From Denitratisoma sp. (GTDB taxonomy: Bacteria > Pseudomonadota > Gammaproteobacteria > Burkholderiales > Rhodocyclaceae), in NCBI GenBank assembly GCA_032027165.1, contig JAVSMO010000001.1, positions 867,548 to 931,547 on the forward strand: a stretch of DNA of 64,000 bases. Direction: 5' to 3'. The notes beneath the pieces were generated by a model that was given only the letters and a program-made list of their open reading frames with translations, had not been told where the DNA came from and made no database searches. The translations under genes were made by a program, and so were the position numbers. Below, piece by piece: positions 83-62,991 of the stretch (position 1 is the stretch's first letter; each line of letters starts with the position of its first letter).

Positions 83-106
83 AAAGTCAGCTTGCGCAAG
101 ACGGCG
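83..106 (+). repeat. Dispersed bipartite motif, copy 1 (AAAGTCAGC-N9-ACGGCG)
   Basis: One mismatch (final T to C) from AAAGTCAGT-N9-ACGGCG. This is the only copy between genes, lying just after the integrase. Its spacer makes a small palindrome (CTTGCGCAAG) and it overlaps the possible -35 of the toxin-antitoxin promoter. Confidence 0.7.
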
Positions 107-120
107 ATATGGGCTATTTT
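92..120 (+). promoter_or_regulatory. Possible sigma-70 promoter of the toxin-antitoxin pair
   Basis: TTGCGC at 92-97 and TATTTT at 115-120 are 17 bp apart, about 30 bases before the antitoxin start. The match is moderate. A palindrome CTAATTAG at 138-145 could belong to an autoregulatory operator, as such pairs usually repress themselves, but this is inference. Confidence 0.35.
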
Positions 121-150
121 ATGACCATTATTAAGACCTAATTAGAGCCC

Positions 151-670: not shown

Positions 671-710
671 CCGTTCGGCCCGCGCAGAAACTCTATTGGC
701 GGGAGGAATC

Positions 711-1568: not shown

Positions 1569-1569
1569 G

Positions 1570-3966
1570 TCACTTGGGCAGCTCGTAGCCTTTCTCGCGG
1601 AACAGGCGCAGGCAGGCGGCGGCCACCTGCGGGTCGTAGAACCGGCCGCTGTTCTGCTCGATCTCTTCCAGCGCCTTGTCGATGCCGAGCGCCGGCCGGT
1701 AGGGCCGGTGCGAGGCCATCGACTCGACCACGTCGGCCACGGCGAGGATGCGCGCTTCGAGGATGATGGCTTCGCCCTTCAGGCGCTGCGGGTAGCCGCT
1801 GCCGTCGAGGCGCTCGTGGTGCTGCAGGATCACCTCGGGCAGCGGCCAGGGAAATTCCACGCCCTTCAGGATGTCGTAGCCGCTGCGGGCGTGGTTCTTG
1901 ATGATCTCGTATTCCAGGTCGGTCAGCCGCCCCGGCTTGCTGAGGATTTCCGCCGGCACGCTGATCTTGCCGATGTCGTGCACGTAGCCGGTCATGCGCA
2001 GGCCGATGACGGTTTCCGCGGGCAAGTCCAGCTCCTCGCCGAGGGCGGCGGCGAGTTCGCCGACGCGGCGCTCGTGGCCGGAGGTGTAGGGGTCGCGCAG
2101 TTCGACCATGGCGGAGACCGCCTCGACGGTGGCCATCATGGCGTGCTCCAGCTTGCGCGTGTAGCGCTCGATCTCCTCCTGCGCCTTCCTGCGCTCGCCG
2201 ATGTCCTGCGCCACGCCGAGGATCACCGGCTTGCTTTCGAGATGGGCGAGCGTGGCGCGCGCGCCGATGTCCACCGTGCCGCCGTCCTTGCGCAGGCCGG
2301 TGAGGTTGCGCTCGACCGATGCCACCTCGCCGGCGGCGACGGCGCGCAGCATCTCGGCGACGTTGGCCCGATCCGCCTCGGCGACCAGCGGCAGGATCTC
2401 CCTGCCGTCGAGCTCGCCCGGCGCATAGCCGAGAATCTCGCAGGCGCGCGGGTTGGCGAAGACGAAGCGCCCGCCGTCAAGCATGAAGATGGCGGCGATG
2501 TTCTGTTCGACGACGCTGCGGAACAGGATTTCCCGCTCCCGCACCGATTCCTCGGCCAGCCGCCGCAGCGCCTCCCGGTCGAAGTTCTCGAGGGCGAAGG
2601 AGACATCCTTGGCCATCTCCTCGAGCAGGGTACAGGTTTGCGCGTCGAAGACGCCCGCCTCGGCCGCATACAGGTTGAGCGCGCCGACGACGAAGTTGCG
2701 GCGCGTCAGCGGCAGCGCGGCCGAGGCGCGGATGCCGGCCTGCCGGGCCGCCTCGTGCCAGGGCGCGGTGGCCGGATCGGCGAGGAAGTCGTTGCAATAG
2801 TAGGGGCGTCCTTCGCGCAGGGCGATCGCCGAGGGGCCGCGGCCTTCCGGCAGGGCCGGATCGAGGCTGATGCCGATGCTGCTCAGATAATCGCCAAGGT
2901 TGCCGGCGCTTGCGTTGGGCGCCAGCCTGGCCGTGGCCTCGTCGATGAGGCCGATCCAGGCGCCGAGGTAGCCGCCGGTGTCCGCGCAGATATGGCAGAT
3001 CCGCTCGAACAGTTCGTCGCGGCTGCCAATGCGGACGATGGCCTCGTTGGTCTGGCTGAGCACGGCGTAGGCCGTATACAGGCGGCGGATCTGCGCCGCC
3101 GCCGCGTGCTGGTCCTCCAGCAGGCTGAGCAGGGCGGCGCGCGCGCGCGCGTTCTCCTCGATGCGCCGCTGCAGCTCGGCTTCCAGGGCCTTGCGCGCGG
3201 TGATGTCGCGGATGACGGCGGTGAACTGCGTGCGGCCGCCCACCCCGGCCGCCGACAGCGCGATCTCGATCGGGAAGGGGTTGCCGTCCTTCCGGCGCCC
3301 TTCGATCTCGACGACCCGGCCCATGATGCGGGATTCGTGCGTTTCCAGGTAGCGCCGCATGCCGGTGCGGTGGGCGTCATGGTGCTTTGGGGGGATCAGC
3401 AGGGTGACCGGTTGGCCGAGGGCCTCGGCGGCGGCGTAGCCGAAGACGGTTTCCGCGCCGCGGCTGAAGTAGCGGATGATCCCGTCGTCGTCGGCGGCGA
3501 CGATGGCGTCGGCCGCGGAGTCGGCCATGGCGCGGAAGCGTGCCTCGCTCTCGCGCAGGGCGGCTTCGGCCCTTTGCCGCTCGCGCCGCTCGCCGGCATC
3601 GGCGAGCTCGCGCACCACCGCCGGGGCGAGGCGCGACAGATTGCTCTTCATGATGAAGTCGTCGGCGCCCCGGCGCATCAGCTCGACGGCGGCCTCCTCC
3701 TTGATGGCGCCGGAGACGACGATGAAGGGAATGTCGCGCCCGCTCTCCTGCAGGAGGGACAGCGCGGCGCCGGCATCGAAATCGGGCAGGCGGTAGTCGG
3801 ACAGCACGACGTCCCAGTGCTGCCTTTCCAGCGCGGCGGCCATCGCCCCGGCCGTTTCGACGCGCTCATGCAGGACTTCGTGGCCGGCCTGTTGCAGATG
3901 CCGCACCAGCAGGCGGGCGTCGTCGGCGGAGTCTTCGACGATCAGGACGGAGAGGGGCGCGTTCAT
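1570..3966 (-). CDS. Response regulator REC-PAS-GAF-PAS-HD-GYP (c-di-GMP phosphodiesterase)
   Basis: A 798-residue soluble protein. Residues 1-120 are a receiver domain with acidic residues E11/D12 and likely phosphoacceptor D57 (VVLSDYRLPD). PAS follows at about 140-265, GAF at about 310-460, PAS at about 475-595, and HD-GYP at about 605-795. The HD-GYP motifs are intact: SGHERRV, VHDIGKISVPAEIL, HHERLDGSGYP and ARILAVADVVESM. The family hydrolyses cyclic di-GMP, so phosphorylation and PAS/GAF ligand signals probably set phosphodiesterase output. The start codon overlaps the stop of the upstream membrane sensor (ATGA), so the two are coupled. No kinase domain exists in either protein, so the phosphodonor must come from elsewhere. 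Confidence 0.9.
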   Translation of the reverse strand: MNAPLSVLIVEDSADDARLLVRHLQQAGHEVLHERVETAGAMAAALERQHWDVVLSDYRLPDFDAGAALSLLQESGRDIPFIVVSGAIKEEAAVELMRRGADDFIMKSNLSRLAPAVVRELADAGERRERQRAEAALRESEARFRAMADSAADAIVAADDDGIIRYFSRGAETVFGYAAAEALGQPVTLLIPPKHHDAHRTGMRRYLETHESRIMGRVVEIEGRRKDGNPFPIEIALSAAGVGGRTQFTAVIRDITARKALEAELQRRIEENARARAALLSLLEDQHAAAAQIRRLYTAYAVLSQTNEAIVRIGSRDELFERICHICADTGGYLGAWIGLIDEATARLAPNASAGNLGDYLSSIGISLDPALPEGRGPSAIALREGRPYYCNDFLADPATAPWHEAARQAGIRASAALPLTRRNFVVGALNLYAAEAGVFDAQTCTLLEEMAKDVSFALENFDREALRRLAEESVREREILFRSVVEQNIAAIFMLDGGRFVFANPRACEILGYAPGELDGREILPLVAEADRANVAEMLRAVAAGEVASVERNLTGLRKDGGTVDIGARATLAHLESKPVILGVAQDIGERRKAQEEIERYTRKLEHAMMATVEAVSAMVELRDPYTSGHERRVGELAAALGEELDLPAETVIGLRMTGYVHDIGKISVPAEILSKPGRLTDLEYEIIKNHARSGYDILKGVEFPWPLPEVILQHHERLDGSGYPQRLKGEAIILEARILAVADVVESMASHRPYRPALGIDKALEEIEQNSGRFYDPQVAAACLRLFREKGYELPK

Positions 3967-5744
3967 GTCGGAGCGGCCTTGGAGGGATGCGCCTCGCTGG
4001 GCGGCGCGGCGTCCTGCGGCTGTCCGTAGCGGGGCGGTTCGCCGAGCCGCTGCCGCAATGCGTTTACTTCGGCCTTGAGTTCGCCGATGCGGTCCTCGCG
4101 GTCGAGGGTGACCTCGTACCAGCGGCGCAGCTCGTCGAGCTGCCTGCGCACGGTTTCCTCGGCGCGCCGGCGCTCGCCGATGTCGCGGATGAAGCTCTGG
4201 CGGAAGCGCTGCCCGCCGATCTCGACGACGCGCGAGCTGATTTCCACCGGGAACGGGCTGCCGTCCTTGCGCCGGTGCACGGTCTCGAACTGGATGCCGC
4301 CCGGCCTGTCGGCGGCGTTGAACTGGCGGTCGAGGGAATCGAGCGAGTCCGGGTCGCGCAGGTCGCGGATTTGGAGCGTGCGGATTTCCTCTGCCGTGTA
4401 GCCGTAGGCGGCGAGCGCCGCCTCGTTCGCCTCGACGATCCGGCCCGCCGGGTCGGCGAGCAGGATGATGTCGCGCGCCTGCTGGAACAGCGCCTCGAAG
4501 CGGAGGGCCAGCGCCGTCCGCTCCGCCTGCGCCTGCCGCTCGCTGGCGGCATGGACGGCCTGGCGGTTGCGCCAGAGCAGGACGACGAACAGGGCGGAGA
4601 TGCCGATCGCGAGCAGGACCATGGCGAATATCTGGCCGGCCTGCCGGCGCAGCGGCCGCAGCACCTCCTCGGTGTCGGTCTTGGCCACGATGTGCCAGGG
4701 CGTGCCGGGCACGCTTTCGAAGGCGGCAATGACCTCGATGCCGCGGAAGTCCCGGCCCTCGAAGATGCCTTTTCCGTCCTTCCGGTCCCTGGGCGACGAC
4801 AAGGCCGTATCGGCGAGCGGAACGCGCTGCTCCGTCGGGCGCGCGCCCGAGCGGCGCGGCGGCGTGATGAAGACGACGTGGTCGCCTTCCACCCGTAGCA
4901 GCAATGCTTCCGAGGAATCGCTCGGAATCGGCCAGGACTGCGCCATCGAAAACAGCAGGGCGAGCGGATCGGCGCTGAGGACCAGCACGCCCGCGGCTTC
5001 CGGCAGCGGCAGCAGGAAGTCGATGCGGTAGGTCCGGCCGGCGGCATCGACGGGATGCACGTCGTGGAGGCGGAAGCCGCCGTCGGCGGCGGTGTGCGCG
5101 ATCGCCTGCCTGAGCGCGGTTTCGGGTTCGCGGGCCTCGCCGGCCTGCAGCAGGGGGCGGCCGTCCGCGGCGTAGAGGCCGATCGCCGTCCACTCGCCGG
5201 CTTCGAGCAGGGCATCGAAATGCAGGCGGACGTGGCGGTCTGCGTCCGGCGCGTTGTCGGTCGCGAGCCGCCGCGCGGCCTCGAGGAGGTCCGGGTCGCG
5301 CCGCAGGATTTCCGCCTGCTGGTGACCCCGGTCGACCCAGCGCCGGATCTGGACGGCCTTGAGCTCGGCGATGGCGGCTTGCTGGCTATGCTGCTGCTTC
5401 TTGAAGGCGGTGGCCTGGTGGCGATAGGCGAGGGTGCCGGTGCCGGCGATGAGCGCGACGAGCAGCAGGAAAGTCAGTCCCAGCAGCACGGCGCCGTGGG
5501 TGTCCGGCGCGGCCGCGGCGGCCGGTGCCGGCGTGCGCATGAGCACGTACATCACCAGCGCCGTCACGGTCACGAAGCCGAGCCCCTTCCAGGACTGGAC
5601 GAGGAAGTGCGTTTCGTGATCCTGGACGAGCGTGGCGGTCAGCGCGTCGGAAACCAATATCCACAGCACGGCTGTCGCCAGATAGCCCAGCGAGATCCTG
5701 GCTGGGCGGGAAAGCTGCCATTTTTTCTTTTTGTCCGGTTGCAT
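3963..5744 (-). CDS. Membrane sensor: periplasmic domain, PAS, coiled coil, no kinase
   Basis: About 593 residues from the ATG at 5744, which has a G-rich site upstream; an ATG at 5789 would add 15 residues. Hydrophobic segments near the N-terminus (SLGYLATAVLWILVSDALTA; a second around VTVTALVMYVLM; VLLGLTFLLLVALIAGTGTL) precede a periplasmic Cache-like region of about 220 residues. A further membrane segment (FAMVLLAIGISALFVVLLW) leads to a PAS domain (FEALFQQARDIILLADPAG to about FRQSFIRDIGERRRAE) and a short coiled coil. There is no histidine kinase, GGDEF or EAL domain. The stop overlaps the start of the REC-HD-GYP gene by 4 bp, so this is probably the sensory partner of that phosphodiesterase, acting by contact or through a third kinase. 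Ligand unknown. Confidence 0.82.
   Translation of the reverse strand: MQPDKKKKWQLSRPARISLGYLATAVLWILVSDALTATLVQDHETHFLVQSWKGLGFVTVTALVMYVLMRTPAPAAAAAPDTHGAVLLGLTFLLLVALIAGTGTLAYRHQATAFKKQQHSQQAAIAELKAVQIRRWVDRGHQQAEILRRDPDLLEAARRLATDNAPDADRHVRLHFDALLEAGEWTAIGLYAADGRPLLQAGEAREPETALRQAIAHTAADGGFRLHDVHPVDAAGRTYRIDFLLPLPEAAGVLVLSADPLALLFSMAQSWPIPSDSSEALLLRVEGDHVVFITPPRRSGARPTEQRVPLADTALSSPRDRKDGKGIFEGRDFRGIEVIAAFESVPGTPWHIVAKTDTEEVLRPLRRQAGQIFAMVLLAIGISALFVVLLWRNRQAVHAASERQAQAERTALALRFEALFQQARDIILLADPAGRIVEANEAALAAYGYTAEEIRTLQIRDLRDPDSLDSLDRQFNAADRPGGIQFETVHRRKDGSPFPVEISSRVVEIGGQRFRQSFIRDIGERRRAEETVRRQLDELRRWYEVTLDREDRIGELKAEVNALRQRLGEPPRYGQPQDAAPPSEAHPSKAAPT
5470..5493 (+). repeat. Dispersed bipartite motif, copy 2
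   Basis: Exact AAAGTCAGT-N9-ACGGCG, spacer CCCAGCAGC. It lies antisense in the membrane sensor gene, where the opposite strand codes for A-V-L-L-G-L-T-F. Confidence 0.85.
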
Positions 5745-11660: not shown

Positions 11661-12865
11661 GCCTCCTGTCCTTCGACGAAGCCCTGGATAAGCTCCTCGC
11701 CGCCGCCCGCCCGGTGACGGAGATCGAGGCGGTGGATACCGTCGCCGCCGCCGGCCGCACGCTGGCGCGTGCGCAGGCGAGCGGCATCGTCGTGCCGCCG
11801 CTCGACAACTCGGCGATGGACGGCTATGCCGTGCGTCTTGCCGACATCGCCGCTTCGGGCGTTCGATTGCCGGTGGCGCAGCGCATCCCCGCCGGCAGCG
11901 TCGGCACGCCGCTCCAGCCCGGCACGGCGGCGCGCATCTTCACCGGCGCGCCGGTGCCGGAGGGCGCCGATGCGGTGGTGATGCAGGAGTTGTGCGAGCA
12001 TGCCGGCGAGGGCGTCGTGCAGGTGAACCATGTGCCGCGCCCCGGCGAGAACATCCGCCGCGCCGGCGAGGACATTCAAAACGGCGCCGAAATCCTCGCC
12101 GCCGGCACGCGGCTGGCGCCGCAGGACATCGGCCTGGCCGCCTCGGTGGGGCTGGCGACGCTGCCGGTGTTCCGGCGGCTGCGCGTGGCGGTGTTCTTCA
12201 CCGGCGACGAGCTGTCGATGCCGGGCGAGACGCTCAAGCCGGGCGGCATCTACAACTCGAACCGCTACACCCTGCGCGGGCTGCTTGCCGCGCTCGGCTG
12301 CGAGGTGCGCGACCTCGGCATCGTGCGCGATACGCTGGAGGCGACGCGCGCCGCGCTGCGCGAGGCGGCGGCGGAGAGCGATGTCATCATCACCAGCGGC
12401 GGCGTCTCCGTCGGCGAGGAAGACCACGTCAAGGCGGCGGTGCAGGCGGAAGGCGCCCTCGACCTGTGGAAGATCGCGATAAAACCCGGGAAACCGCTCG
12501 CATTCGGCAAAGTCAGTCGCCGCGACACGGCGTTCATCGGCCTGCCGGGCAATCCGGTGTCCACCTTCGTCACCTTTTTGATGCTGGTGCGGCCCTTCCT
12601 GCTCGCCTGCCAGGGCGCGCGCGTCACGGCGCCGCACGGCCTGATGATGCGCGCCGACTTCGACTGGCCGAAGCCGGACCGGCGGCGCGAGTTCCTGCGC
12701 GTGCGCATCAACAATGATGGCGGACTCGACCTGTTCCCCAACCAGAGCTCGGGCGTGCTGACCTCCTGCGCCTGGGCCGACGGCGTGGTGGACAATCCGC
12801 CGGCGCAGGCCGTGCAACGCGGCGAGCTGGTGCGCTTTCTGCCGTTTTCCGAGTTGTTATACTGA
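11657..12865 (+). CDS. moeA: MoeA, molybdopterin molybdenumtransferase
   Basis: A 402-residue protein of full family length. Visible signatures are PPLDNSAMDGYAV (about 49-61), FTGDELSMPGE and GGIYNSNRYTLRGLL, TSGGVSVGEEDHVK, and PGKPLAFGKV with FIGLPGNPVSTFV. MoeA inserts molybdate into adenylylated molybdopterin to give active Moco. I start at the ATG at 11657 overlapping mobB; the open frame runs further upstream but lacks MoeA similarity. One copy of the dispersed 24-bp motif lies inside it and codes for G-K-V-S-R-R-D-T-A in the PGKPLAFGKV region. Confidence 0.95.
   Translation: MSLLSFDEALDKLLAAARPVTEIEAVDTVAAAGRTLARAQASGIVVPPLDNSAMDGYAVRLADIAASGVRLPVAQRIPAGSVGTPLQPGTAARIFTGAPVPEGADAVVMQELCEHAGEGVVQVNHVPRPGENIRRAGEDIQNGAEILAAGTRLAPQDIGLAASVGLATLPVFRRLRVAVFFTGDELSMPGETLKPGGIYNSNRYTLRGLLAALGCEVRDLGIVRDTLEATRAALREAAAESDVIITSGGVSVGEEDHVKAAVQAEGALDLWKIAIKPGKPLAFGKVSRRDTAFIGLPGNPVSTFVTFLMLVRPFLLACQGARVTAPHGLMMRADFDWPKPDRRREFLRVRINNDGGLDLFPNQSSGVLTSCAWADGVVDNPPAQAVQRGELVRFLPFSELLY
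12509..12532 (+). repeat. Dispersed bipartite motif, copy 3
   Basis: Exact AAAGTCAGT-N9-ACGGCG, spacer CGCCGCGAC, sense strand inside moeA, read as K-V-S-R-R-D-T-A. Confidence 0.85.
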
Positions 12866-17130: not shown

Positions 17131-19713
<2,583 letters not shown>

Positions 19714-21633: not shown

Positions 21634-22838
21634 CCGCCGCCTCCGCCGCCATCCGCGGCGACGTCCGCGTCATCGGCCTGGTCGGCTTCGCCCACGGCAC
21701 CTCGCACTTCTTCCACCTGCTGCTGCCGCCGCTGTTTCCCTGGCTGATGCCGGAGTTCGGCCTCAGCTTCACCCAGGCCGGCGCCATGATGACGGTCTTC
21801 TTCGTCGTGTCGGCGCTCGGGCAGGCCGCGTCCGGCTTCGTGGTGGACCGCATCGGGCCGCGCCGCGTGCTGCTGGCCGGCATCGCCTGCTTCGTCCTTG
21901 CCGGCCTCCTGCTCGCCGCAGCGAACGGCTACGCGGCGCTGCTCGCCGTCGGCGCCCTGGCCGGCCTCGGCAACAGCGTCTTCCATCCGGCCGACTTCAC
22001 GGTGCTGAACCGCAAGGTGAGTCCGGCGCGGCTCGGCCACGCCTTCTCGGTGCACGGCCTGTCGGGCAACCTCGGCTGGGCGATCGCCCCGGTCTACCTC
22101 ACCGGCATCGCCGCGGCGGCGGGCTGGCGTGCGGCGGCGCTCGGCGCGGCGGCGCTCGGCGCCCTGGCCTGGGCGGTGGTGTGGCTGCGGCGAGACGCCA
22201 CCGAGCTACCCGGGGACGGCGCAAAAGTCAGTCACGGCGGCACGGCGAGCACCTTCGGCTTCCTCGGCGCCGGCGCCGTGTGGATGTGCTTCGCCTTCTT
22301 CCTGCTGATCACCACGGCCTTCGGCGCCCTGCAGAACTTCGCCACCCCGGTGATGCAGAACGTGTACGGACTGTCGGTGGCCGCTGCGGCGGCCACGCTG
22401 ACGGCCTTCCTGCTCGGCGGCGCCGCTGGCATCGTCGCCGGCGGCGTGCTGGCGGGCCGCAGCGGCGCGCACGACCGGCTGATCGCCGCGGCGCTCGGCG
22501 CGGCGGCGCTGATGGCGGTCGTCATCGCCGGCGGCGTGCTCCCGGCCTGGAGCGTCTCGCTGGCGATGGGCGCCATGGGCTTCTGCGCCGGCATCGCGGG
22601 GCCGTCGCGCGACCTGCTGGTGCGCCATGCCGCGACGGCGCGCTTCGGCCAGCAGGCCTTCGGCCGCGTGTATGGCTTCGTCTATTCGGGGCTGGACCTC
22701 GGCCTGGCGGTGTCGCCGCTGGTGTTCGGCCCGCTCATGGATGCCGGCCGCTTTGGCGCGGTGCTGGTCGGGGTGGCGCTGCTGCAGGGCGCGGCGATCC
22801 TGACCGCGCTGGGCGTCGGGCGCCTGCCGGGGCGCTAG
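21630..22838 (+). CDS. MFS transporter (fosmidomycin-resistance-like)
   Basis: A 402-residue protein with twelve predicted membrane segments and the MFS loop 2-3 motif as D-R-I-G-P-R-R-V-L-L. The opening VIGLVGFAHGTSHFFHLLLPPLFPWL and FHPADFTVLNRKV resemble the Fsr/fosmidomycin-resistance branch. MFS carriers use the proton gradient to export or import small molecules; the cargo here is not evident. Translationally coupled to the pyruvate-kinase-like gene. Its last 4 bases overlap the tail of the opposite-strand diguanylate cyclase. Confidence 0.85.
   Translation: MTAASAAIRGDVRVIGLVGFAHGTSHFFHLLLPPLFPWLMPEFGLSFTQAGAMMTVFFVVSALGQAASGFVVDRIGPRRVLLAGIACFVLAGLLLAAANGYAALLAVGALAGLGNSVFHPADFTVLNRKVSPARLGHAFSVHGLSGNLGWAIAPVYLTGIAAAAGWRAAALGAAALGALAWAVVWLRRDATELPGDGAKVSHGGTASTFGFLGAGAVWMCFAFFLLITTAFGALQNFATPVMQNVYGLSVAAAAATLTAFLLGGAAGIVAGGVLAGRSGAHDRLIAAALGAAALMAVVIAGGVLPAWSVSLAMGAMGFCAGIAGPSRDLLVRHAATARFGQQAFGRVYGFVYSGLDLGLAVSPLVFGPLMDAGRFGAVLVGVALLQGAAILTALGVGRLPGR
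22224..22247 (+). repeat. Dispersed bipartite motif, copy 5
   Basis: Exact AAAGTCAGT-N9-ACGGCG, spacer CACGGCGGC. It falls in the cytoplasmic linker between the two halves of the MFS transporter, coding K-V-S-H-G-G-T-A. Confidence 0.85.
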
Positions 22839-24178: not shown

Positions 24179-25150
24179 TCAGGCGGCGGCGGATTCGAAC
24201 AGCCGCTTGACCAGACGCCGCGCCAGGCCGGCGGCGACGCGCCTGCGGTAGCCGGCGGCCACCAGGGTCGAGGCCATCGGCTGGATTTCCTTGCGCACCG
24301 CCTTGTCGAGCGCGGTGTAGAAGGCGTCGTCCGGTTTCTGGCCGGCGAGGGCGTCGAGGCCCGGCACCAGGCCGGGGTAGGAATTCACCCCGGTGCAGGC
24401 GACGCGCAGCGCGGCGACGCGGTCGCCGTCGCGCTTGAGCGCCACGGCGATGCCGGCGAGCGGGAAGTCGACGGCGCCGCGGATGCGCACCTTCTCGTAG
24501 CCGGCCGTCCAGCCGGCCTGGGCCGGCACGTCGACCGAGACGAGCAGGTCGCCGGGGGCGAGCTTGAGGTGGCGCATGCCGTCGTCGGCGAAAAGGGCGG
24601 CGACCGGTTCGCGGCGGTTGCCCGTCGGGCCGGCGATGTCGACCTCGGCGCCGAGCGCCAGCAGGGCCGGCGCGACGTCGCCGCTGTAGCAGGCGTAGCA
24701 GCGGTCCGACTTGGGCGCGACGCGGCAGGTGTCACCCTCGCACTTCATGCAGAACTCGTTGGCGGTGCGCCACCAGTCGCCCTGGTTGTAGAAATAGCAG
24801 CGCGTGTCCTGCATCAGGTTGCCGCCGAGCGTGGCCGCGACGCGGTGCGTCGGTCCGGCCACCTGCGCGGCGGCCTCGGCCAGCAGCGGCGCGTGGGCGC
24901 GCACGGCGTCCGAGGCGCACAGCGCTTCCAGCGTGACGCCGGCGCCGATGCGCAGCGACTGACTTTCGGCGCGGATCTCGCGCAGTTCGGCCAGTCCCGA
25001 AAGATCGATGAGCGTCTGCGCCTTCTGGATGTTGCGGCGCAGGTTGGGCACGAGGTCGGTGCCGCCGGCGAGGTAGCGGGATTCGCCGGGGCGGTGCAAG
25101 GCGATGGCCTGGGCGACCGATTCGGGCTTGAGGATGGCGAGGGCTTGCAT
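24179..25150 (-). CDS. hcrB: 4-hydroxybenzoyl-CoA reductase beta subunit (FAD, [4Fe-4S])
   Basis: A 323-residue xanthine-oxidase-family flavoprotein: R-Y-L-A-G-G-T-D-L-V-P (about 25-35) and ATLGGNLMQDTRC (about 106-118) bind FAD. A loop at about 118-155 contains C118, C134, C142 and C151, spaced 16, 8 and 9. As I recall, this is the spacing of the extra [4Fe-4S] ligands in the Thauera HcrB subunit, which separate 4-HBCR from ordinary xanthine dehydrogenases. The enzyme removes the para-hydroxyl of 4-hydroxybenzoyl-CoA to give benzoyl-CoA using ferredoxin electrons. Its start shares one base with the hcrA stop. One dispersed motif copy lies within it. Confidence 0.9.
   Translation of the reverse strand: MQALAILKPESVAQAIALHRPGESRYLAGGTDLVPNLRRNIQKAQTLIDLSGLAELREIRAESQSLRIGAGVTLEALCASDAVRAHAPLLAEAAAQVAGPTHRVAATLGGNLMQDTRCYFYNQGDWWRTANEFCMKCEGDTCRVAPKSDRCYACYSGDVAPALLALGAEVDIAGPTGNRREPVAALFADDGMRHLKLAPGDLLVSVDVPAQAGWTAGYEKVRIRGAVDFPLAGIAVALKRDGDRVAALRVACTGVNSYPGLVPGLDALAGQKPDDAFYTALDKAVRKEIQPMASTLVAAGYRRRVAAGLARRLVKRLFESAAA
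24943..24966 (-). repeat. Dispersed bipartite motif, copy 6 (one mismatch)
   Basis: AAAGTCAGT-N9-TCGGCG on the minus strand, spacer CGCTGCGCA, sense to hcrB, read in the frame giving S-Q-S-L-R-I-G. Confidence 0.7.
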
Positions 25151-32459: not shown

Positions 32460-35400
32460 GGCAGGCTGAAGTAGATGACGGCGCCGGCGCCGGGACTGCC
32501 CTCGGCGCGGACGCGGCCGCCGTGGCGCTGGATGATGCGCTGGACGGTGGCCAGCCCGATGCCGGTGCCGGAGAATTCGTCGGGCCGGTGCAGGCGCTGG
32601 AAGGGCTGGAACAGCTTGCCGGCATAGGCCGGGTCGAAGCCGACGCCGTTGTCGCGGACGAAGTAGGCGCGCTCGCCGTCGATTTCCCGGGTGCCGAATT
32701 CGATGCGCGCGGTTTCGTTCCGCGAAGTGAACTTCCAGGCATTGTCGAGCAGGTTCTCGAGGACGATGCGCAACAGCGTCGGATCGGCCTGCGCCGTTAA
32801 GGCTTCGGCAATGACGATCTCGGGACGATGACGCGAATGCTGCGCAAGCTCCAGCAGGACGGTCCGTGCCATGGAGGAGAGATCGACTTCGCGGCGGTGC
32901 AGCGACATGCGCGTGATGCGCGCCAGTTCGATCATGTCGTCGATGGTCTGGGAGAGGCGCTGGCTGGCTTTGCGGATGCGCTCCAGGTGTTCTCGGCCGG
33001 CGTCGTCGAGACGGGTGCCGTAATCCTCGGCGAGGATGTGGGCGAAGCCGTCGATCCCGCGCAGGGGCGCGCGCAGATCGTGCGAGACCGAGTAGGAGAA
33101 GGCTTCCAGTTCGCGGTTGGAAGCTTCCAGGGCGGCGGTTCGCTCGCGCACGCGCTGCTCCAGGCCCTCGTTGAGCTGGCGGATCTCCTGCTGGGCGGCT
33201 TCCAGCGAGTCGATGTCCTGGTTGACGATGACGGCGCCGCGGATGGCGCCTTGGGCATCGAACAGGGGAATCGCCGAATTGAGGATGGTCTTGCGGCTGC
33301 CGTCGAAGCACTGGATGACGATCTTCTCGTTGATCGAGGTTTCCCCCTTGGAGAAAGCCCGTGCGGCGGCCCATTCCCCGGGCTGGATTTCGCGGCCGTT
33401 GTCGGCCCACCAGCCCCTGTATTCGCCGAGTTGCTCGACGCCGACATAGCGGGCGCCGGCCCAGATGCGGGTGGCGGCGGGGTTGCTGCGGCTGATGCGG
33501 CCCTGGCCGTCCATCAGCCAGATGCCCACGGGCAGGGAATCCATCACCGCCTCGAGCAACTGGCGCTCGCGCTGCACGGCTTCCTCCGCACGATGGCGCT
33601 CGGTAATGTCCGTGAACACGCCGATGTAACGCAAAGGTTTCCCCGCCTCGTCGCGCACGACGGTGATGCTGAGCAGTTCCGGGTACACCTCGCCGTTCTT
33701 GCGGCGGTTCCAGATTTCGCCGCTCCAGTAGCCGTCGCGCACGATCGCCTGCCACATCGCTGCGTAGAAGGCGCGGTCCTGGCGGCCGGACTGCAGCAGG
33801 CTGGGGTTGCGGCCCAGCACTTCCGCTTCCGTGTAGCCGGTGATCTCGGTGAAGGCGCGATTGACCGAGATGATGTTCTGCTCGGCGTCGGTGACGGTGA
33901 CGCCTTCCCGGCTGTTCTCGAAGACGGTGGCGGCGAGGCGCAGCTGGATTTCGGCGCGCTTGCGCTCTGCGATGTCGCGGGCGACGCTCATGACGGCGGG
34001 GCGGCCGTGCAGGGTGATGCGCACCGCCGCCGTCTCGACGTTCACGATGTCGCCATCCAGCGTCAGGTAGCGCCGCTCCATCAGGGGCAGCATGGCTTCC
34101 GTCCCGCTTTCCATGAGTTCCAGGCGCGCCTCCTTGTGCGGCCAGTCCTCGGGCGTGACCAGGTCGCGCAGCGGGCGGCCGAGGAGGGCCTGCGGCGAAG
34201 CCGCCCGGTGCAGGGCCAGGGCCGCCTTGTTGGCGAGCACGACGACCCGGTCCTGCAGCACCATGATGGCGTCCGGCGACAGCTCGAACAGGAGCCGGTA
34301 GCGCTCCTCGCTCTCGCGCAGGGCCATTTCCGAGGCCTTCCGTTCGGTGATGTCCTTGCCGGTGCCGCGGTAGCCGGCAAAGCGTCCGTCCGGACTGAAA
34401 ATTGGCCGCCCGCTGACGACGAACCAGCGCAGGCTTCCGTCCGGCGAGCGCATGCGGTAGGTGAAGTCGTGGAACGGCTCGTGCCCCTCCAGCAGCGCCC
34501 GGTGCCTGGCCCAGTCCGCCTCGCCGACCCCCTCGATCGGCAGTTCCCAGCGCAACTTGCCGATGGTGGAGGACGCGTCTACGCCGCTCTTGCTGGAGAC
34601 GCCGACGGACATCTGGGTAAAACGGAAGCGTTCGTCCTGTTCCCAGTACCAGTCGGAGGACAGTTCGGCGAGGTCGCGGAAGCGCGCTTCGCTTTCCCGG
34701 AGGTCGCGCGTGACTTCCTTGGCGTGGCGTTCCGCAAGGCGGCGCGAGCGTACCAGCGCGTGCGCCAGCGCTGCCAGCAGCAAAGTCAGTGTCAGCAGGA
34801 CGGCGGGCACGTAGATGGCGAGGTGGCGCTGGGGAAACAGGATCAGTTCCGGGCCGGCCTCGAGGGTCAGATGCCATTGCGTGCCCTGTACGTCGACATT
34901 GCGCTGCGCGGTGTAGCGCACGCCGCCGGCAGGGGCGGTTTCGCTGCCGGACAGGATGGGCACGTTGGCTTCGGGCGCGCCACCCGGCGGCAGGGCGGCG
35001 ACGCGCAGCCGTACCTGCTGGTCGCGCAACTGCGCGACCAGCGGCGCGAGCATCCTGTCGAGATTGACCGTGATGGCAACCACGCCCGTCAGCCCTCTGC
35101 CTGTCAGGGCGAAGCGCGGCGGCTGCGAGTCCGTGTGGTACACGGGCGCGAGGAAGGCCAGCACGGGCGTGCCGGCGTTCGTCCGGTCGTGCGCAAAGGG
35201 CAGTGTCGCCGCCAGTGCGCCTTCCGCTTCCAGCCGCCCGAGCACCGCGGTCACGGATGGATTGTCGGTAAGTCTCAGGCCGGGCAGCCATTCGTTCCCG
35301 GCGGCGGGCTCGGCGTGGCGGATGAACAGGTTGCCGCCCCGGCGCTCCGCGAAGAAATAGGCCTGAATGGGGTGGGTGCCCGCATGCAGGCGCAGGATGT

Positions 35401-42476: not shown

Positions 42477-43500
42477 CCAGGCTGTCCAGCCCTGCCGGCG
42501 AAAGGTCGTCGGTGGCATAGCGCGGCGCGTCGGCGAAAAATGCGTAGTTCCTGCCCTGCGAACGCTTGTAGAGCGGGTCGTAGTGCTTCTCCAGCAGTTC
42601 CCCCACCAGCGCCGGCCAGTCGCGCGCGTCGATGAGCGCATTCCACTGCGCCAGCGTTTCGCCGCTCTGCAGCTCGCGCAGGCAGGCGAGTTTTTCCTTG
42701 AGCGAGGCCGGGTCGGCGAGGAAGTAGTCGTAGTCGCCGATGAGGAAGGCGACGCGCGCCGGCAAAGTCGCCTCGAGGCGCAGGCAGGGGCCGGCGCGCA
42801 TGGTCTCCAGCAGGGCGTCGGGCACCTGCAGCCGGCCGATCTTGCGGCTCTCCGCCTCGACATAGACGGGTTTGGAAAAAGTCAGTCCCTGCAGCACGGC
42901 GAGCAGGCGGCTCTCGAACATCTTCTGCGAGGGCTGCGGCTCATCCGGCAGGCCGCCCAGCACCGAGCCCTTGTGCGCGGCCAGCGCCTCCAGGTCGAGC
43001 ACCTGTGCGCCCTGGGCGGCGAGCGTCTCGAGCAGGCGGCTCTTGCCGCTGCCGGTGGCGCCGGTGACGACGCGGAAGGCGAAGCGCCGCGGCAGATCGG
43101 CGAGCTGCTCGACAACGTGGCGGCGCCAGGACTTGTAGCCGCCGTCGAGAGCGCAGGCGTGCCAGCCGATCTGGCGCAGGACATGGGTCATGGCACCGCT
43201 GCGCTTGCCGCCGCGCCAGCAGTAGACCAGCGGCTTCCATTCGCGCGGCTTGTCGAGGAAGCGCGTCTCGATGTGCTCGGCGATGTGGCGGGCGACGAGG
43301 GCGGCGCCGATCTTCTTGGCGGCGAAGGGCGACTCCTGCTTGTAGACCGTGCCGACGCGGGCGCGCTCCTCGTTGGAGAGCACCGGGCAATTGACCGCGC
43401 CCGGCATATGGTCTTCGGCGTACTCGGCCGGCGAGCGCACGTCGATGATCTCGTCAAATTCGCCGGCCTGTGTTACGTTCGCGACACCCTGTATCTTCAT
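42430..43500 (-). CDS. mnmH: tRNA 2-selenouridine synthase
   Basis: About 356 residues; the start may be 43500 or 43509. An N-terminal rhodanese domain has I-I-D-V-R-S-P-A-E-Y-A-E-D-H and the active Cys in PLVYCWRGGKRSG. A P-loop domain (VTGATGSGKSRLLETLA, about 140-156) follows, as in MnmH/SelU (YbbB). The enzyme swaps sulfur for selenium at U34 of certain tRNAs through a geranylated intermediate, using selenophosphate. Its donor gene selD lies head to head just 7 bp away. One dispersed motif copy lies inside, coding A-V-L-Q-G-L-T-F on the gene strand. Confidence 0.94.
   Translation of the reverse strand: MKIQGVANVTQAGEFDEIIDVRSPAEYAEDHMPGAVNCPVLSNEERARVGTVYKQESPFAAKKIGAALVARHIAEHIETRFLDKPREWKPLVYCWRGGKRSGAMTHVLRQIGWHACALDGGYKSWRRHVVEQLADLPRRFAFRVVTGATGSGKSRLLETLAAQGAQVLDLEALAAHKGSVLGGLPDEPQPSQKMFESRLLAVLQGLTFSKPVYVEAESRKIGRLQVPDALLETMRAGPCLRLEATLPARVAFLIGDYDYFLADPASLKEKLACLRELQSGETLAQWNALIDARDWPALVGELLEKHYDPLYKRSQGRNYAFFADAPRYATDDLSPAGLDSLARRILANAALPDLQP
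42878..42901 (+). repeat. Dispersed bipartite motif, copy 8
   Basis: Exact AAAGTCAGT-N9-ACGGCG, spacer CCCTGCAGC, antisense to mnmH. Confidence 0.85.
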
Positions 43501-43507
43501 CGTTTTC

Positions 43508-47912: not shown

Positions 47913-48722
47913 TCACCCCGCTGCAGCATGAAGCAGGATGGCCGGCCAATCCCGTTTCGTGATGACCGGCCGCCGGCGAAAGACGTCGCCGCGCACGCGC
48001 TGAAGCTTGTCCAGTACGCGAAAGCCGCTGGCGATGATGAGCCGCAGCTCGAGGCCGATGCGGCCGGGCAGCACGTGCACGAGGGGACTGGCGGCCTCCA
48101 TCATGCTGCGGGCGCGGTCGGTCTGGAAATCCATCATGGCTGCCCAGGCAGCGTCCCAGCGGCCCTCGGCGATCTGGGACTCTTTGATGCCGAAGCGCGC
48201 CAGTTCGTCCTGCGGCAGGTAGACGCGTCCCTTCTGCCAGTCGATCGCGATGTCCTGCCAGTGGTTGATGAGCTGCAGGCTGCTGCAGACGCCGTCCGAC
48301 AGGGACTGACTTTTGGCGTCGTCGATCCCGTAGAGATGCAGCAGCAGCCGGCCGATCGGATCGGCGGAACGACGGCAGTAATCCATCAATTCTCCGAAAC
48401 TGGCGTAGCGTTTCTTCACTACGTCCTGACTGAAGGCGTCGAGCAGGTCGCGGAACAGAGACATAGGCAGGTGGTGCTCCGCGACGGCCGGTCGCAGGCG
48501 CAGGAAAACCGGATCCTGCGTCGGCCGGCCGGCTTCAATGGCATCCAGTTCAGCCCGGTAGCGATCCAGCCCGGCCAGGCGCTCCCGGTCGGTGAGGGTA
48601 CCTTCGTCGGCAATGTCGTCGGCGCTGCGGGCAAAGACATAGATGGCCTTGACCGGCTCGCGCAGGCGCGCAGGCAGCAGGAGCGATGCGACGGGGAAGT
48701 TCTCGTAATGGTCGGCCGACAT
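47913..48722 (-). CDS. hpnC: HpnC, hydroxysqualene synthase
   Basis: A 269-residue squalene/phytoene-synthase-family protein starting MSADHYENFPVASLLLP, with F-A-R-S-A-D-D-I-A-D-E, YCRRSADPIGRLLL and DIAIDWQKGRVYLPQDEL. HpnC converts presqualene diphosphate to hydroxysqualene. First gene of hpnCDE. The squalene presumably feeds hopanoids through a cyclase not in this window. One dispersed motif copy lies inside it. Confidence 0.92.
   Translation of the reverse strand: MSADHYENFPVASLLLPARLREPVKAIYVFARSADDIADEGTLTDRERLAGLDRYRAELDAIEAGRPTQDPVFLRLRPAVAEHHLPMSLFRDLLDAFSQDVVKKRYASFGELMDYCRRSADPIGRLLLHLYGIDDAKSQSLSDGVCSSLQLINHWQDIAIDWQKGRVYLPQDELARFGIKESQIAEGRWDAAWAAMMDFQTDRARSMMEAASPLVHVLPGRIGLELRLIIASGFRVLDKLQRVRGDVFRRRPVITKRDWPAILLHAAAG
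48290..48313 (-). repeat. Dispersed bipartite motif, copy 9
   Basis: Exact AAAGTCAGT-N9-ACGGCG on the minus strand, spacer CCCTGTCGG, sense to hpnC and read as K-S-Q-S-L-S-D-G. Confidence 0.85.
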
Positions 48723-57472: not shown

Positions 57473-57484
57473 GGCGAAGCGTTG

Positions 57485-58285: not shown

Positions 58286-58299
58286 CGTCGAATCCCGTA

Positions 58300-58331: not shown

Positions 58332-58333
58332 CA

Positions 58334-58363
58334 ATTATAGCGGAGCCCGGCAGATGACGCCAA
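58334..58363 (-). promoter_or_regulatory. Sigma-70 promoter of fabI
   Basis: On the minus strand TTGGCG (58363-58358) and perfect TATAAT (58339-58334), spacer 18 bp, about 50 bases before the fabI ATG. Confidence 0.65.
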
Positions 58364-58391
58364 TTCGCCCATCCGCTACACTCCACGCACG

Positions 58392-60578: not shown

Positions 60579-61555
60579 TGCTGGCCTACATCATCCGCCG
60601 CCTGCTCTACGCCATTCCGATCCTGATCGGCGTCAATCTTTTGACCTTCACGCTGTTCTTCGTGGTGAACACGCCCGACGACATGGCGCGCATGCAGCTC
60701 GGCATCAAGCGCGTCACACCGGAGGCCATCCAGAAGTGGAAGGCGGAGCGGGGCTATGACAAGCCGCTGCTCTACAACGGGACGGCAGAGGGCGCGGGAA
60801 AAATCACGCGCACCATCTTCTTCGAAAAGTCGGTGAAGCTCTTCGTCTTCGATTTCGGACGCGCCGACGACGGCCGCGACATCGGCCACGAAATCAGGAT
60901 GCGCATGGCGCCGAGCCTGGCTATCGCCGTGCCGGCCTTCATCCTCGGGCTCTTCGTAACGATCTCCTTTGCCCTCCTGCTGGCCTTCTTTCGCGCCACC
61001 TATCTCGATTTCTGGGGCGTGGTCATGTGCGTGGCCATGATGTCCATCTCCAGCCTGTTCTACATCATCGGCGGGCAATACCTGGTGAGCAAGGTCTGGC
61101 ATTTGGTGCCAATCTCGGGCTATGCCGGTGGCCTGGATGCCGGGCGCTTCCTGCTGCTGCCGGTAATCATCAGCGTGGTTGCCGGCATCGGCAGCAGCAC
61201 GCGCTGGTATCGCACCATTTTCCTCGAGGAGATCGGCAAGGACTACGTCCGCACGGCGCGTGCTAAGGGCCTGTCAGAATTGGCGGTGTTGTTTCGTCAT
61301 GTACTGAAGAACGCCATGATTCCGATCCTCACCGGTGTCGTCGTGGTGATCCCGCTGCTCTTCATGGGCTCGCTGCTCACCGAATCCTTCTTCGGCATTC
61401 CGGGGCTCGGTTCCTACACCATCGACGCCATCAATGCGCAGGACTTCGCCGTGGTGCGCTCGATGGTCTTCATCGGCTCGGTGCTGTACATCGCCGGCTT
61501 GCTGCTGACAGACCTGTCCTACACCCTGGTCGATCCGCGCGTGAGGCTGCAGTGA
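60578..61555 (+). CDS. ABC permease, DppB/YejB type
   Basis: A 325-residue inner-membrane protein beginning MLAYIIRRLLYAIPILIGVNLLTF, the standard start of DppB/OppB permeases. Six membrane segments, and the EAA loop as YVRTARAKGLSELAVLFRHVLKNAMIPIL (about 226-254) that contacts the ATPase. It has a longer periplasmic part after segment 1 (about 35-105), as in YejB. Coupled at both ends by one-base overlaps. Confidence 0.92.
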   Translation: MLAYIIRRLLYAIPILIGVNLLTFTLFFVVNTPDDMARMQLGIKRVTPEAIQKWKAERGYDKPLLYNGTAEGAGKITRTIFFEKSVKLFVFDFGRADDGRDIGHEIRMRMAPSLAIAVPAFILGLFVTISFALLLAFFRATYLDFWGVVMCVAMMSISSLFYIIGGQYLVSKVWHLVPISGYAGGLDAGRFLLLPVIISVVAGIGSSTRWYRTIFLEEIGKDYVRTARAKGLSELAVLFRHVLKNAMIPILTGVVVVIPLLFMGSLLTESFFGIPGLGSYTIDAINAQDFAVVRSMVFIGSVLYIAGLLLTDLSYTLVDPRVRLQ

Positions 61556-62991
61556 TGCCGATCGTCTTGTGGACCGATGCCCTGATTTTCCTCCTCATTG
61601 CCTCCGCGATCGGTGCCGGCTTCTACGTCATCCGCCGCGAATACCTGCTGGCGTCGTGGCGCCGCGTCGGCGAGAGCCGCGCCGGCATGGCGTCGCTGAC
61701 GGTGTTGGCGGCTTTCATCGCCATCGGTCTGTTGGATTCGCTGCACTATCGGCCGCGTCTCGACGACGTCTCGGGCAGGACGGCCAGCGGCTACAGCAGT
61801 GAGGTGCGCAGCGCCCTGGATGCGCTGCTGCTGCCCTTGCGGGCTGGTACCGAGAAGACCTATTCCGCACCGCTGGCCACACACCTTTATGCCAGGGAGA
61901 CGGTTGAACTGCCGGACGGCAGCCAGACGCGGGTGTTCCCGCGATTACAGCATGGCGGCGCGCACCTTGAGAACCCCGAGCAGGACTGGGGAAAGGACGT
62001 GGCCGCCCGGACCGTCCGCGGGTTGGCGTTCGCCGTGCTGGCGGGACTGACTTTTTCTGCGATCGTCGTGCAAGCGGCGGCACTGCGCTGGGGGCTTGGC
62101 TGGCAGGTAACCTGGCGCCGCATCTGGAAGGGCGACACGCAGTTTGCCTGGAATGCAGTCCTGACCGCCTTGGCGGTCCTCATGCTGCTGGCCGGGCCGG
62201 TCATTTCGCTGGCCGGCGGCTACCACGTCTTCGGCACCGACAAGGTTGGACAGGATGTGCTGTATCTCACGCTGAAGAGCATCCGCACCGGACTGGTCAT
62301 CGGTACCATCACCACGCTGTCGATGCTGCCCTTCGCGGTGGCGCTGGGCATTGTCGCCGGATATCGCGGCGGTTGGATCGACGACTTCATCCAGTATCTC
62401 TACACGACTCTGAATTCGATCCCCAGCGTGCTGCTCATTGCCGCCTCGGTGCTGATGGTTCAGGTGGCGATCGACACGCATCCGGACTGGTTTGCCACCG
62501 CAGCCCAGCGTGCCGATGCGCGCCTGCTGGCACTGTGCCTGATCCTAGGCGTGACGAGCTGGACGGGATTGTGCCGGCTGCTGCGCGCCGAGACTCTCAA
62601 GCTGCGTGAGCTGGAGTACGTTCAGGCGGCGCAGGCCTTCGGCGCCTCGCCCTCGCGCATCATGGGGCGCCACATCCTGCCCAACGTCATGCACATCGTG
62701 CTGATCGCTGTGGTGATGGACTTTTCCGGCCTGGTGCTGGCCGAGGCGGTTCTCTCCTATATCGGCATCGGCGTCGATCCCAGCACCATCAGCTTCGGCA
62801 CCATGATCAACACGGCGCGCCTCGAGCTGGCGCGCGAGCCGGTGGTCTGGTGGTCGCTGATCGCCGCCTTTGCCTTCATGTTCGTGCTGGTCCTGGCGGC
62901 CAACCTGTTTTCCGACGCGGTACGGGATGCTTTCGATCCGCGCGTTGCCAGCCGCCGTGTCGCGGCCCCGGCGCAGGAGAAGGCGGCATGA
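61555..62991 (+). CDS. ABC permease, DppC/YejE type, with long N-terminal extension
   Basis: A 478-residue permease, larger than DppC (about 300). Two N-terminal segments (ALIFLLIASAIGAGFYV; ASLTVLAAFIAIGLLDSL) flank the start of an extension reaching about residue 215, with roughly 85 residues probably outside. The core has GTDKVGQDVLYLTLKSIRTGL and EAA loop LEYVQAAQAFGASPSRIMGRHILPNVMHIV. I start at ATG 61555 rather than GTG 61552. A copy of the dispersed motif lies on its opposite strand. Confidence 0.9.
   Translation: MPIVLWTDALIFLLIASAIGAGFYVIRREYLLASWRRVGESRAGMASLTVLAAFIAIGLLDSLHYRPRLDDVSGRTASGYSSEVRSALDALLLPLRAGTEKTYSAPLATHLYARETVELPDGSQTRVFPRLQHGGAHLENPEQDWGKDVAARTVRGLAFAVLAGLTFSAIVVQAAALRWGLGWQVTWRRIWKGDTQFAWNAVLTALAVLMLLAGPVISLAGGYHVFGTDKVGQDVLYLTLKSIRTGLVIGTITTLSMLPFAVALGIVAGYRGGWIDDFIQYLYTTLNSIPSVLLIAASVLMVQVAIDTHPDWFATAAQRADARLLALCLILGVTSWTGLCRLLRAETLKLRELEYVQAAQAFGASPSRIMGRHILPNVMHIVLIAVVMDFSGLVLAEAVLSYIGIGVDPSTISFGTMINTARLELAREPVVWWSLIAAFAFMFVLVLAANLFSDAVRDAFDPRVASRRVAAPAQEKAA
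62031..62054 (-). repeat. Dispersed bipartite motif, copy 10
   Basis: Exact AAAGTCAGT-N9-ACGGCG on the minus strand, spacer CCCGCCAGC, antisense to the permease; the gene strand reads A-V-L-A-G-L-T-F. Confidence 0.85.

What the first reader, a model, noticed from the sequence alone, without database searches (positions are those of the whole stretch)
83..62054. A 24-bp bipartite DNA motif dispersed about every 7 kb through unrelated genes
AAAGTCAGT-N9-ACGGCG occurs at 83, 5470, 12509, 18682, 22224, 24943(-), 34782, 42878, 48290(-) and 62031(-). Eight copies are exact and two have one mismatch. Every AAAGTCAG(T/C) I found by eye in the window has the second half at exactly 9 bases. The spacer is also biased (about CnCnGCRRC). 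With 15 fixed bases over both strands, about 0.0001 exact copies are expected by chance. The copies sit in genes of unrelated function. They are read in different frames and on both strands (K-V-S-x-x-x-T-A three times, S-Q-S twice, antisense A-V-L-x-x-L-T three or four times), so the constraint is on DNA, not protein. The pattern resembles uptake signal sequences of Pasteurellaceae or Neisseria, or sites read by a chromosome-organising or recombination protein. I know of no such element described with this sequence.
Basis: partly seen in the sequence, partly recalled or inferred. Interest (0 to 1): 0.93.

Follow-up and report, generated by a model that had tools for sequence, protein, structure and literature searches.

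The report
Third self-DNA password in bacteria
A two-part, 24-letter DNA word is scattered tens to hundreds of times, in differing dialects, through genomes of nine genera of one bacterial family, and it likely works as a password by which cells would recognise DNA of their own kind before taking it up, something so far reported from only two other families.

Summary
AAAGTCAGT-N9-ACGGCG occurs exactly 327 times in the 3.4-Mb chromosome (167/160 by strand; reversed pattern 0; 0.002-0.03 expected). In a one-quarter sample, 53 coding copies stand against a mean of 0.33 in synonymous-codon shuffles, and the gap is 9 in 86 of 89 pairs. A blind search for gapped word pairs ranks the motif first in five of six motif-bearing genomes. 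The genus is that of Candidatus Desulfobacillus denitrificans (Betaproteobacteria; Rhodocyclaceae by record titles). Of 395 family genomes, 71 in 9 of 68 genera carry 20 or more copies of a relaxed form, as dialects on one geometry. In five congeners the core is 97% identical at aligned sites, spacer and flanks 84-85%; one congener lacks the signal. Sites show no replication-strand polarity, form no hairpin pairs and are about five times denser outside genes. This is the profile of DNA uptake sequences, which a 2025 paper says are known only in Neisseriaceae and Pasteurellaceae. Uptake and receptor are not shown: a ComP_DUS-family minor pilin is present but lacks ComP's cysteine pattern and does not track the motif.

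The parts
83..106 (+). motif copy, 1 mismatch (AAAGTCAGC...); outside predicted genes, upstream of the first predicted gene (151-396)
   Evidence: gene prediction; the same variant in congener G010, and in G001 with one extra A in the alignment
5470..5493 (+). motif copy, exact; inside a PAS-domain sensor gene (3963-5744, minus)
   Evidence: no aligned congener stretch among those fetched
12509..12532 (+). motif copy, exact; inside moeA-like gene (11657-12865, plus)
   Evidence: core intact in G001, G003, G009, G010, 5 mismatches in G008
18682..18705 (+). motif copy, exact; inside clpB-like gene (17131-19713, plus)
   Evidence: core intact in G001, G003, G009; indel near the end in the G010 alignment; 5 mismatches in G008
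22224..22247 (+). motif copy, exact; inside a major-facilitator transporter gene (21630-22838, plus)
   Evidence: intact in G001, 1 mismatch in G003 and G009, 7 in G010, 3 in G008
24943..24966 (-). motif copy, 1 mismatch (ATCGGCG); inside a CO-dehydrogenase-type FAD subunit gene (24179-25150, minus)
   Evidence: the same variant in G001, G003, G004; 7 mismatches in G008
34782..34805 (+). motif copy, exact; inside a PAS histidine-kinase gene (32456-35617, minus)
   Evidence: no aligned congener stretch among those fetched
42878..42901 (+). motif copy, exact; inside a rhodanese-domain gene (42430-43515, minus)
   Evidence: intact in G001, G009, G010, 1 mismatch in G003
48290..48313 (-). motif copy, exact; inside a squalene/phytoene synthase-family gene (47913-48722, minus)
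   Evidence: identical in G001 and G010
62031..62054 (-). motif copy, exact; inside an ABC-transporter permease gene (61555-62991, plus)
   Evidence: intact in G001 and G010

Best explanation
The motif is a genome-wide, dialect-forming 24-bp bipartite DNA signal of Rhodocyclaceae that likely serves as a DNA uptake sequence: a self-recognition word by which a surface receptor, probably a type IV minor pilin, would bind free DNA and favour uptake of DNA from the same or closely related species. Shown: hundreds of copies with fixed 9-bp spacing, placement on both strands without replication polarity, higher density outside genes, core conservation at orthologous sites, genome-wide dialect differences among genera and within one genus, and absence from one congener. 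Inferred: that a receptor reads both half-sites and the bases between them at once; that copies accumulate because DNA carrying them is taken up and recombined preferentially (uptake-driven molecular drive); that G008 lost the signal rather than never had it; and that the machinery is a type IV pilus plus ComEC. Not identified: the receptor.
For: 327 exact copies against 0.002-0.03 expected; codon-shuffle control 53 vs 0.33; gap 9 in 86 of 89 pairs with gaps 0-24; blind gapped 6+6 search ranks the motif first in 5 of 6 motif-bearing sets (G000, G001, G009, G037, G023; in G033 its ACGGCA dialect comes fourth, behind an inverted repeat). Density 0.548/kb outside genes or at their ends against 0.113/kb inside. 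Orientation follows neither local GC skew (p 0.86) nor gene strand fraction (p 0.38), nor the two halves defined by cumulative skew (57 with, 64 against, p 0.59). Inside genes the reverse-complement orientation is commoner (53 vs 34, p 0.053), the direction reported for Pasteurellaceae and Neisseria uptake sequences (PMC2346458, part 1 of 3 seen). Dialects: at least 20 copies of AAAGTCRGY-N9-ACGGCG in 66 of 395 family genomes, and of AAAGTCNG-N10-ACGGC in 71 of 395, in 9 of 68 genera (both counted by hand from the listings); within genus g19 some species have ACGGCA instead (G033 3 to 144 copies, G350 15 to 447). Core 320 of 330 bases identical at aligned window sites in five congeners against 2113 of 2508 flanking (sums over). 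Pilus and competence parts: minor pilin operon with a ComP_DUS-family pilin over the Pfam cut-off, a T2SSE/PilT-type ATPase and PilJ in one 20-kb stretch, ComEC. A 20-kb low-GC stretch whose scanned genes are mainly for surface polysaccharide holds no site, and density rises with GC (Spearman 0.40, p 0.012).
Against: No transformation of any of these species was tested here or found in print. The ComP_DUS-family pilin is present in 78 of 90 relatives, most of which lack the motif; that of G000 is 77.6% identical to the one of motif-poor G019 but only 41-56% to those at the 11 congener loci compared, two of them partial, and the cysteines of its homologues (72, 83, 125, 134) do not match ComP's DD-region pairs (C76-C125, C118-C139; PMC4906244 passages). 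G008 keeps ComEC, DprA and the minor-pilin operon yet lacks the motif. DprA was not found in G000; the interval where it lies in G001 has nearly equal length but did not align, so absence is not established; G016 has only a match below the cut-off. Another site-free stretch is ordinary core genes. Copy density is several-fold lower than in Neisseria, and 24 bp is longer than the 9-12 nt of known signals. Orientation is weakly uneven between stretches (permutation p 0.04) and between quarters of the chromosome (22/14, 8/18, 14/13, 20/12; p 0.06).
Confidence: 0.73

Rival explanations
1. Chromosome-organising or segregation signal: an intracellular protein (FtsK-, Noc-, MatP- or SMC-loader-like) binds the motif to position or compact the chromosome.
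For: Genome-wide placement, slightly more even than Poisson (index of dispersion 0.74 over 38 stretches); conserved at orthologous positions; weak unevenness of orientation between stretches and quarters (p 0.04 and 0.06).
Against: No polarity relative to GC skew (37/32 against 27/25) or to the skew-defined halves (57 with, 64 against) and no empty quarter of the chromosome (36, 26, 27 and 32 sampled sites), whereas such signals are recalled to be polar or confined. Dialects differ even between species of one genus, and the signal is absent from G008 and G314 while relatives hold hundreds of copies, odd for an essential function.
Confidence: 0.13
2. Recombination or repair hotspot (Chi-like) read by a helicase-nuclease.
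For: The dialect spacer GCTGGCGG differs from E. coli Chi GCTGGTGG (quoted in a reference title seen) at one of eight bases.
Against: The G000 dialect has no Chi-like spacer; nearly all pairs keep the exact spacing; no strand bias. Chi sites are short, undivided and strand-biased (recalled).
Confidence: 0.06
3. Self-marker for a restriction or other defence system, for example a methylation target that is kept because it protects.
For: Bipartite half-sites with a fixed gap recall type I restriction-modification sites (recalled).
Against: Fifteen fixed plus several biased bases are far more than such sites have (recalled), and restriction targets are usually avoided, not enriched (recalled); dialects differ by single bases genome-wide.
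Confidence: 0.04
4. Remnants of a mobile repeat, terminators or a regulator's binding sites.
For: Denser outside genes and close to stop codons (73% of 30 stop distances of intergenic sites within 60 bp against 27% of control slots).
Against: No similarity extends beyond about 25 bp; most copies lie inside genes (87 of 131); the closest pair of sites is 72 bp apart in the same orientation, so no hairpins from inverted pairs; unrelated gene functions at the window sites.
Confidence: 0.02

Closest known systems
DNA uptake sequence (DUS) of Neisseriaceae, read by minor pilin ComP
   Same: Hundreds to thousands of copies, dialects that differ by a few bases with a constant inner part, some family members without any obvious signal (PMC3630211, section 6 and passages).
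   Different: Undivided 10-12 bp; here two half-sites with 9 bp between. Denser in Neisseriaceae (943 to 5,918 copies in the genomes named) than here (at most 676). Read as the reverse complement, CGCCGT-N9-ACTGACTTT holds pieces alike to the halves of GCCGTCTGAA set 10 bp apart; a lead only. Receptor here unknown.
Uptake signal sequence (USS) of Pasteurellaceae (Hin-type AAAGTGCGGT; extended 17-mer AAAGTGCGGTCAATTTT)
   Same: A core followed by further conserved bases downstream; no general orientation bias; reverse complement commoner in genes of most species (PMC2346458 part 1 of 3; PMC12616744 passages). The g9 dialect AAAGTCGGT differs from AAAGTGCGGT by one missing base.
   Different: Downstream part here is a sharp ACGGCG instead of A/T-rich bases; different class of bacteria; convergence cannot be told from descent.
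Chi, KOPS, matS, Noc and SlmA sites (recalled)
   Same: Short, genome-wide and taxon-specific.
   Different: Polar or confined along the chromosome and shorter (recalled); here no polarity and no confinement.

Membership tests
DNA uptake sequence class (DUS/USS) | Hundreds or more copies, far above chance and codon expectation | tested here: met
DNA uptake sequence class (DUS/USS) | Both orientations, no replication-strand polarity | tested here: met
   167/160; skew tests; weak unevenness between stretches remains (p 0.04)
DNA uptake sequence class (DUS/USS) | Taxon-specific dialects around a constant inner part | tested here: met
DNA uptake sequence class (DUS/USS) | Under-represented in foreign islands | tested here: inconclusive
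   Site-free low-GC polysaccharide stretch and Spearman 0.40 with GC, but another site-free stretch (L105) is ordinary core genes; 0 strict matches in viral contigs, where hosts are not known
DNA uptake sequence class (DUS/USS) | Raises binding, uptake and transformation of DNA that bears it | not testable with these tools
   needs a competent culture
DNA uptake sequence class (DUS/USS) | Bearer has a competence machinery (type IV pilus, ComEC, DprA) | tested here: inconclusive
   Pilins, T2SSE/PilT-type ATPase and ComEC present; DprA not found in G000, interval unresolved; ComEA, PilQ and others not searched
Neisseriaceae DUS/ComP system | 10-12 bp undivided word with inner CTG | tested here: not met
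   Bipartite 24 bp; dialects with CGG instead of CAG lack CTG on either strand at that place
Neisseriaceae DUS/ComP system | ComP receptor with DD region, disulfides C76-C125 and C118-C139 | tested here: not met
   Pfam PF16732 over cut-off, but cysteine order differs in the homologue alignment (by sequence only); ComP entry 5HZ7 fourth in the fold search with the homologue P0001, E 5.4e-3, TM 0.51
Pasteurellaceae USS | Core AAGTGCGGT or ACAAGCGGT with A/T-rich downstream segments | tested here: not met
Chi/KOPS-type polar signals | Orientation follows replication direction | tested here: not met
   replication halves inferred from cumulative GC skew of 40 stretches

The most novel reading that the evidence does not exclude
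A third, independently evolved language of self-DNA recognition: a bipartite 24-25-bp uptake address, longer than any known DUS or USS, shared as dialects by at least nine genera of Rhodocyclaceae, rewritten genome-wide when the unknown receptor changes specificity (as inside genus g19) and erased when it is lost (G008, G314).
Probability: 0.61. Interest if true: 0.92.

Novelty: new variant of a known kind. Interest (0 to 1): 0.84.

Why it matters
Sequence-specific uptake of own DNA is described in two families only (PMC12616744 passage), and why it evolved is disputed. A third case in environmental Betaproteobacteria, with closely related species that use different dialects or lack the signal, would let molecular drive, mate recognition and receptor co-evolution be tested on an independent data set. 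It would also mark DNA that moved between genera, and could give a handle for transforming bacteria of anammox reactors, where Candidatus D. denitrificans lives.

Tried and rejected
Rejected: chance and codon usage; protein-level constraint (35 intergenic copies share the spacer bias; several reading frames); mobile repeat (no flank similarity); terminator hairpins (no close inverted pairs); polar replication signal.

Led nowhere or against me: ComP_DUS-family presence does not separate motif-bearing from motif-poor genomes (78 of 90); the G000 pilin resembles that of motif-poor G019 most. ComEC (82 of 90) and DprA (87 of 90) are near-universal and do not explain G008. The FimT-type gene beside the pilin shows no GRxR near its end by eye (translation; motif from PMC8897410 passages). 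No new dialect was seen in about 100 kb of G008, where inverted repeats rank first. The fold search gave a general pilin fold. The strict motif has no match in viral contigs, which says little since hosts are unknown. The Candidatus D. denitrificans paper gave no occurrence of 'pili', 'competence' or 'transformation' (term search of the main text).

Dropped before counts: window sites without an aligned congener stretch (3 to 9 of 10, by congener); genes holding N; the mostly masked part of one stretch.

Odds were lowered by 0.01 for the weak orientation unevenness.
Full report
What was checked. The ten sites exist as listed: eight exact, two with one mismatch, no others within three mismatches. 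The window is bases 867,548-931,547 of a 3,405,959-bp single-contig genome, G000, which holds 167 + 160 exact copies; the reversed pattern has none. Base and Markov models expect 0.002-0.03 exact copies. In 811 predicted genes of a sample of about a quarter of the genome, 53 exact copies stand against a mean of 0.33 (maximum 2) in 30 synonymous-codon shuffles. Of 89 AAAGTCAGT...ACGGCG pairs with gaps from 0 to 24, 86 have gap 9. Without being told the motif, a count of all 6+6 word pairs with gaps 0-21 ranks it first in five of six motif-bearing sets (G000, G001, G009, G037, G023); in the sixth, G033, its ACGGCA dialect is fourth behind an inverted repeat. In G008 and in 30 kb pooled from four motif-poor genera it does not appear.

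Whose genome. G001, of the same genus, has a contig of 3,145,360 bp, the length of AP021857.1, the complete genome of Candidatus Desulfobacillus denitrificans, which also carries the 24-mer used as probe. NCBI places that genus in Betaproteobacteria incertae sedis; record titles of other hits, and the genome paper's comparison with a Rhodocyclaceae draft (passage), point to Rhodocyclaceae. I use that name for the tool's family f1; the assignment rests on those titles.

Anatomy. In 161 sites with up to two mismatches the consensus is AAAGTCAGT-CcCnGCRRc-ACGGCG. Positions 6-8 and 21 are invariant, and the common deviations are at positions 9 (T to C), 19 (A to G), 22 and 1-2. The spacer bias is also strong in the 35 intergenic copies (C 97% at its first base, G 83% and C 83% in the middle, then mostly purine-purine), so it belongs to the DNA signal.

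Placement. Of 131 sites with at most one mismatch in 41 stretches (about 852 kb unmasked), 87 lie in predicted genes, 9 overlap gene ends and 35 are intergenic: 0.113 per kb inside and 0.548 per kb outside or at ends. Intergenic sites favour the neighbourhood of stop codons (73% of 30 stop distances within 60 bp, control 27%). In genes the reverse orientation is commoner (53 to 34, p 0.053), 46 of these 53 in one frame. Genes come from my own codon-usage caller, not from an annotation. Orientation follows neither local GC skew (37/32 against 27/25) nor gene strand, nor the two halves set by the turning points of cumulative skew (57 sites with, 64 against). Some unevenness remains: between stretches p 0.04, between quarters 22/14, 8/18, 14/13, 20/12, p 0.06. 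Counts per stretch are a little more even than Poisson (0.74).

Conservation. At window sites that could be aligned with flanks to five motif-bearing congeners (7, 6, 4, 4 and 1 of 10 sites), the core bases agree in 320 of 330 cases, the spacer in 168 of 198 and the flanks in 2113 of 2508. In G008, the congener without the motif, 4 sites align: core 41 of 60, flanks 376 of 456, and none is kept (sums over; site by site, losses included). Choosing sites by the motif in the reference biases the G008 figure downward, so only the contrast with the other congeners is meaningful.

Dialects. With two mismatches allowed, four further genera among 90 genomes stand far above background (287, 746, 164 and 526 copies; genomes of other genera mostly under 20). 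Their consensus words keep the geometry: g9 AAAAGTCGGT-GCTGGCGRG-ACGGCG; g38 AAAAGTCGGC-GCTGGCGR.-ACGGCGa; g2 AAAGTCGGC-GCTGGCG..-ACGGCGa; g23 AAAGTCAGC-..CGGC...-ACGGCGr; g19, g46 and g64 AAAGTCGGC-GCTGGCG..-ACGGCG, each from one genome and 11 to 39 sites. Over 395 family genomes, drawn evenly from a larger group, AAAGTCRGY-N9-ACGGCG reaches 20 or more copies in 66, and the looser AAAGTCNG-N10-ACGGC in 71, in nine genera: g1 15 of 16, g2 21 of 22, g9 1 of 1, g19 17 of 19, g23 1 of 2, g38 1 of 1, g46 4 of 4, g64 9 of 9, g66 2 of 6; all other genomes have at most 17 (counted by hand). The difference exposes a dialect with ACGGCA inside g19: G033 rises from 3 to 144, G152 from 4 to 248, G229 from 9 to 318 and G350 from 15 to 447; the four near-matches in 80 kb of G033 end in A. 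The published DUS dialects differ in a like manner (PMC3630211, section 6).

Machinery. G000 has eleven prepilin-type genes. One cluster, beside ileS, lspA, fkpB and ispH (named by eye from the translations), encodes a 139-aa pilin, a GspH/FimT-type pilin, PilV, PilW, a PilX-like protein (named by position) and PilY1. The first matches Pfam PF16732, ComP_DUS, at 39.5 bits (cut-off 27.3). A T2SSE/PilT-type ATPase and PilJ are encoded in another stretch, as is ComEC elsewhere. These fit a DNA-uptake pilus but do not single it out: ComP_DUS is found in 78 of 90 relatives, ComEC in 82, DprA in 87. The four cysteines conserved among the pilin's homologues are placed unlike ComP's; the predicted fold of the homologue P0001 (mean pLDDT 88) matches several pilins, with ComP fourth; and the G000 pilin's closest relative among the loci compared is from a motif-poor genus. 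I therefore do not name it as the receptor. DprA was not detected in G000, but the corresponding interval is of the expected length and unaligned, so absence is not established.

Interpretation. A signal that is present in hundreds of copies, differs in wording across whole genomes between species while keeping its geometry, is tolerated in genes but denser between them, has no replication polarity and is missing from single lineages is what uptake-driven accumulation predicts, and what DUS and USS show. The two-part form suggests a receptor, or a pair of subunits, that touches two places about one and a half helical turns apart; this is inference. Chromosome-organising and Chi-like readings fit worse but need experiments to exclude.

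Known or new. [quoted passage not shown] Library searches for uptake sequences with Rhodocyclaceae, Betaproteobacteria or named genera, and for the motif letters, showed no description in what was listed (in only 15 of 112 and 10 of 404 papers were listed); the library lacks most subscription journals and bioRxiv. I file it as a new variant of a known kind: it works like an uptake sequence, is neither a DUS nor a USS by their defining letters, and still lacks the functional test.

Noticed in passing
G069:C50:1692-12961; G155:C1:1461266-1502243; G200:C1:1813200-2005930; G070:C104:14060-19610: Tight clusters of the AAAGTCGGCGCTGGCG dialect in otherwise motif-poor genomes (for example 4 of 7 copies of G069 within 12 kb): probably DNA received from a motif-bearing genus, like the alien-DUS islands described in Neisseriaceae (passages).
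   Followed up: no
L009 (JAJVIC010000036.1): A contig labelled Bacteroidia MAG carries the exact 24-mer; the other 31 hits are Betaproteobacteria by title, so it is probably mis-binned.
   Followed up: no
G108 (family f20), places: Repeated AAAGTCAGTCCCCGCAAAACTGCG, alike in most listed copies including the spacer: a repeat family, perhaps a mobile-element end, unrelated to this signal.
   Followed up: no
G008 and G033 stretches: Other abundant inverted repeats: CTGGGAT-N13-ATCCCAG in G008 and CTGTGC-N3-GCACAG in G033, ranked first in the blind search there.
   Followed up: no
L165:7133-13796: The minor-pilin operon proteins of G000 are 65-79% identical to those of another genus (G019), while the first pilin is only 41-56% identical to those at the 11 congener loci compared: likely exchanged by horizontal transfer.
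   Followed up: partly
G000:C1:535776-544563: Four motif copies with nearly the same unusual spacer (ACGGGG[A/G]GG) within 9 kb, perhaps in a repeated gene family.
   Followed up: no
dialects of g2, g9, g19, g38, g46, g64: The spacer GCTGGCGG differs from E. coli Chi GCTGGTGG at one base, and some copies have GCTGGTGG exactly.
   Followed up: no
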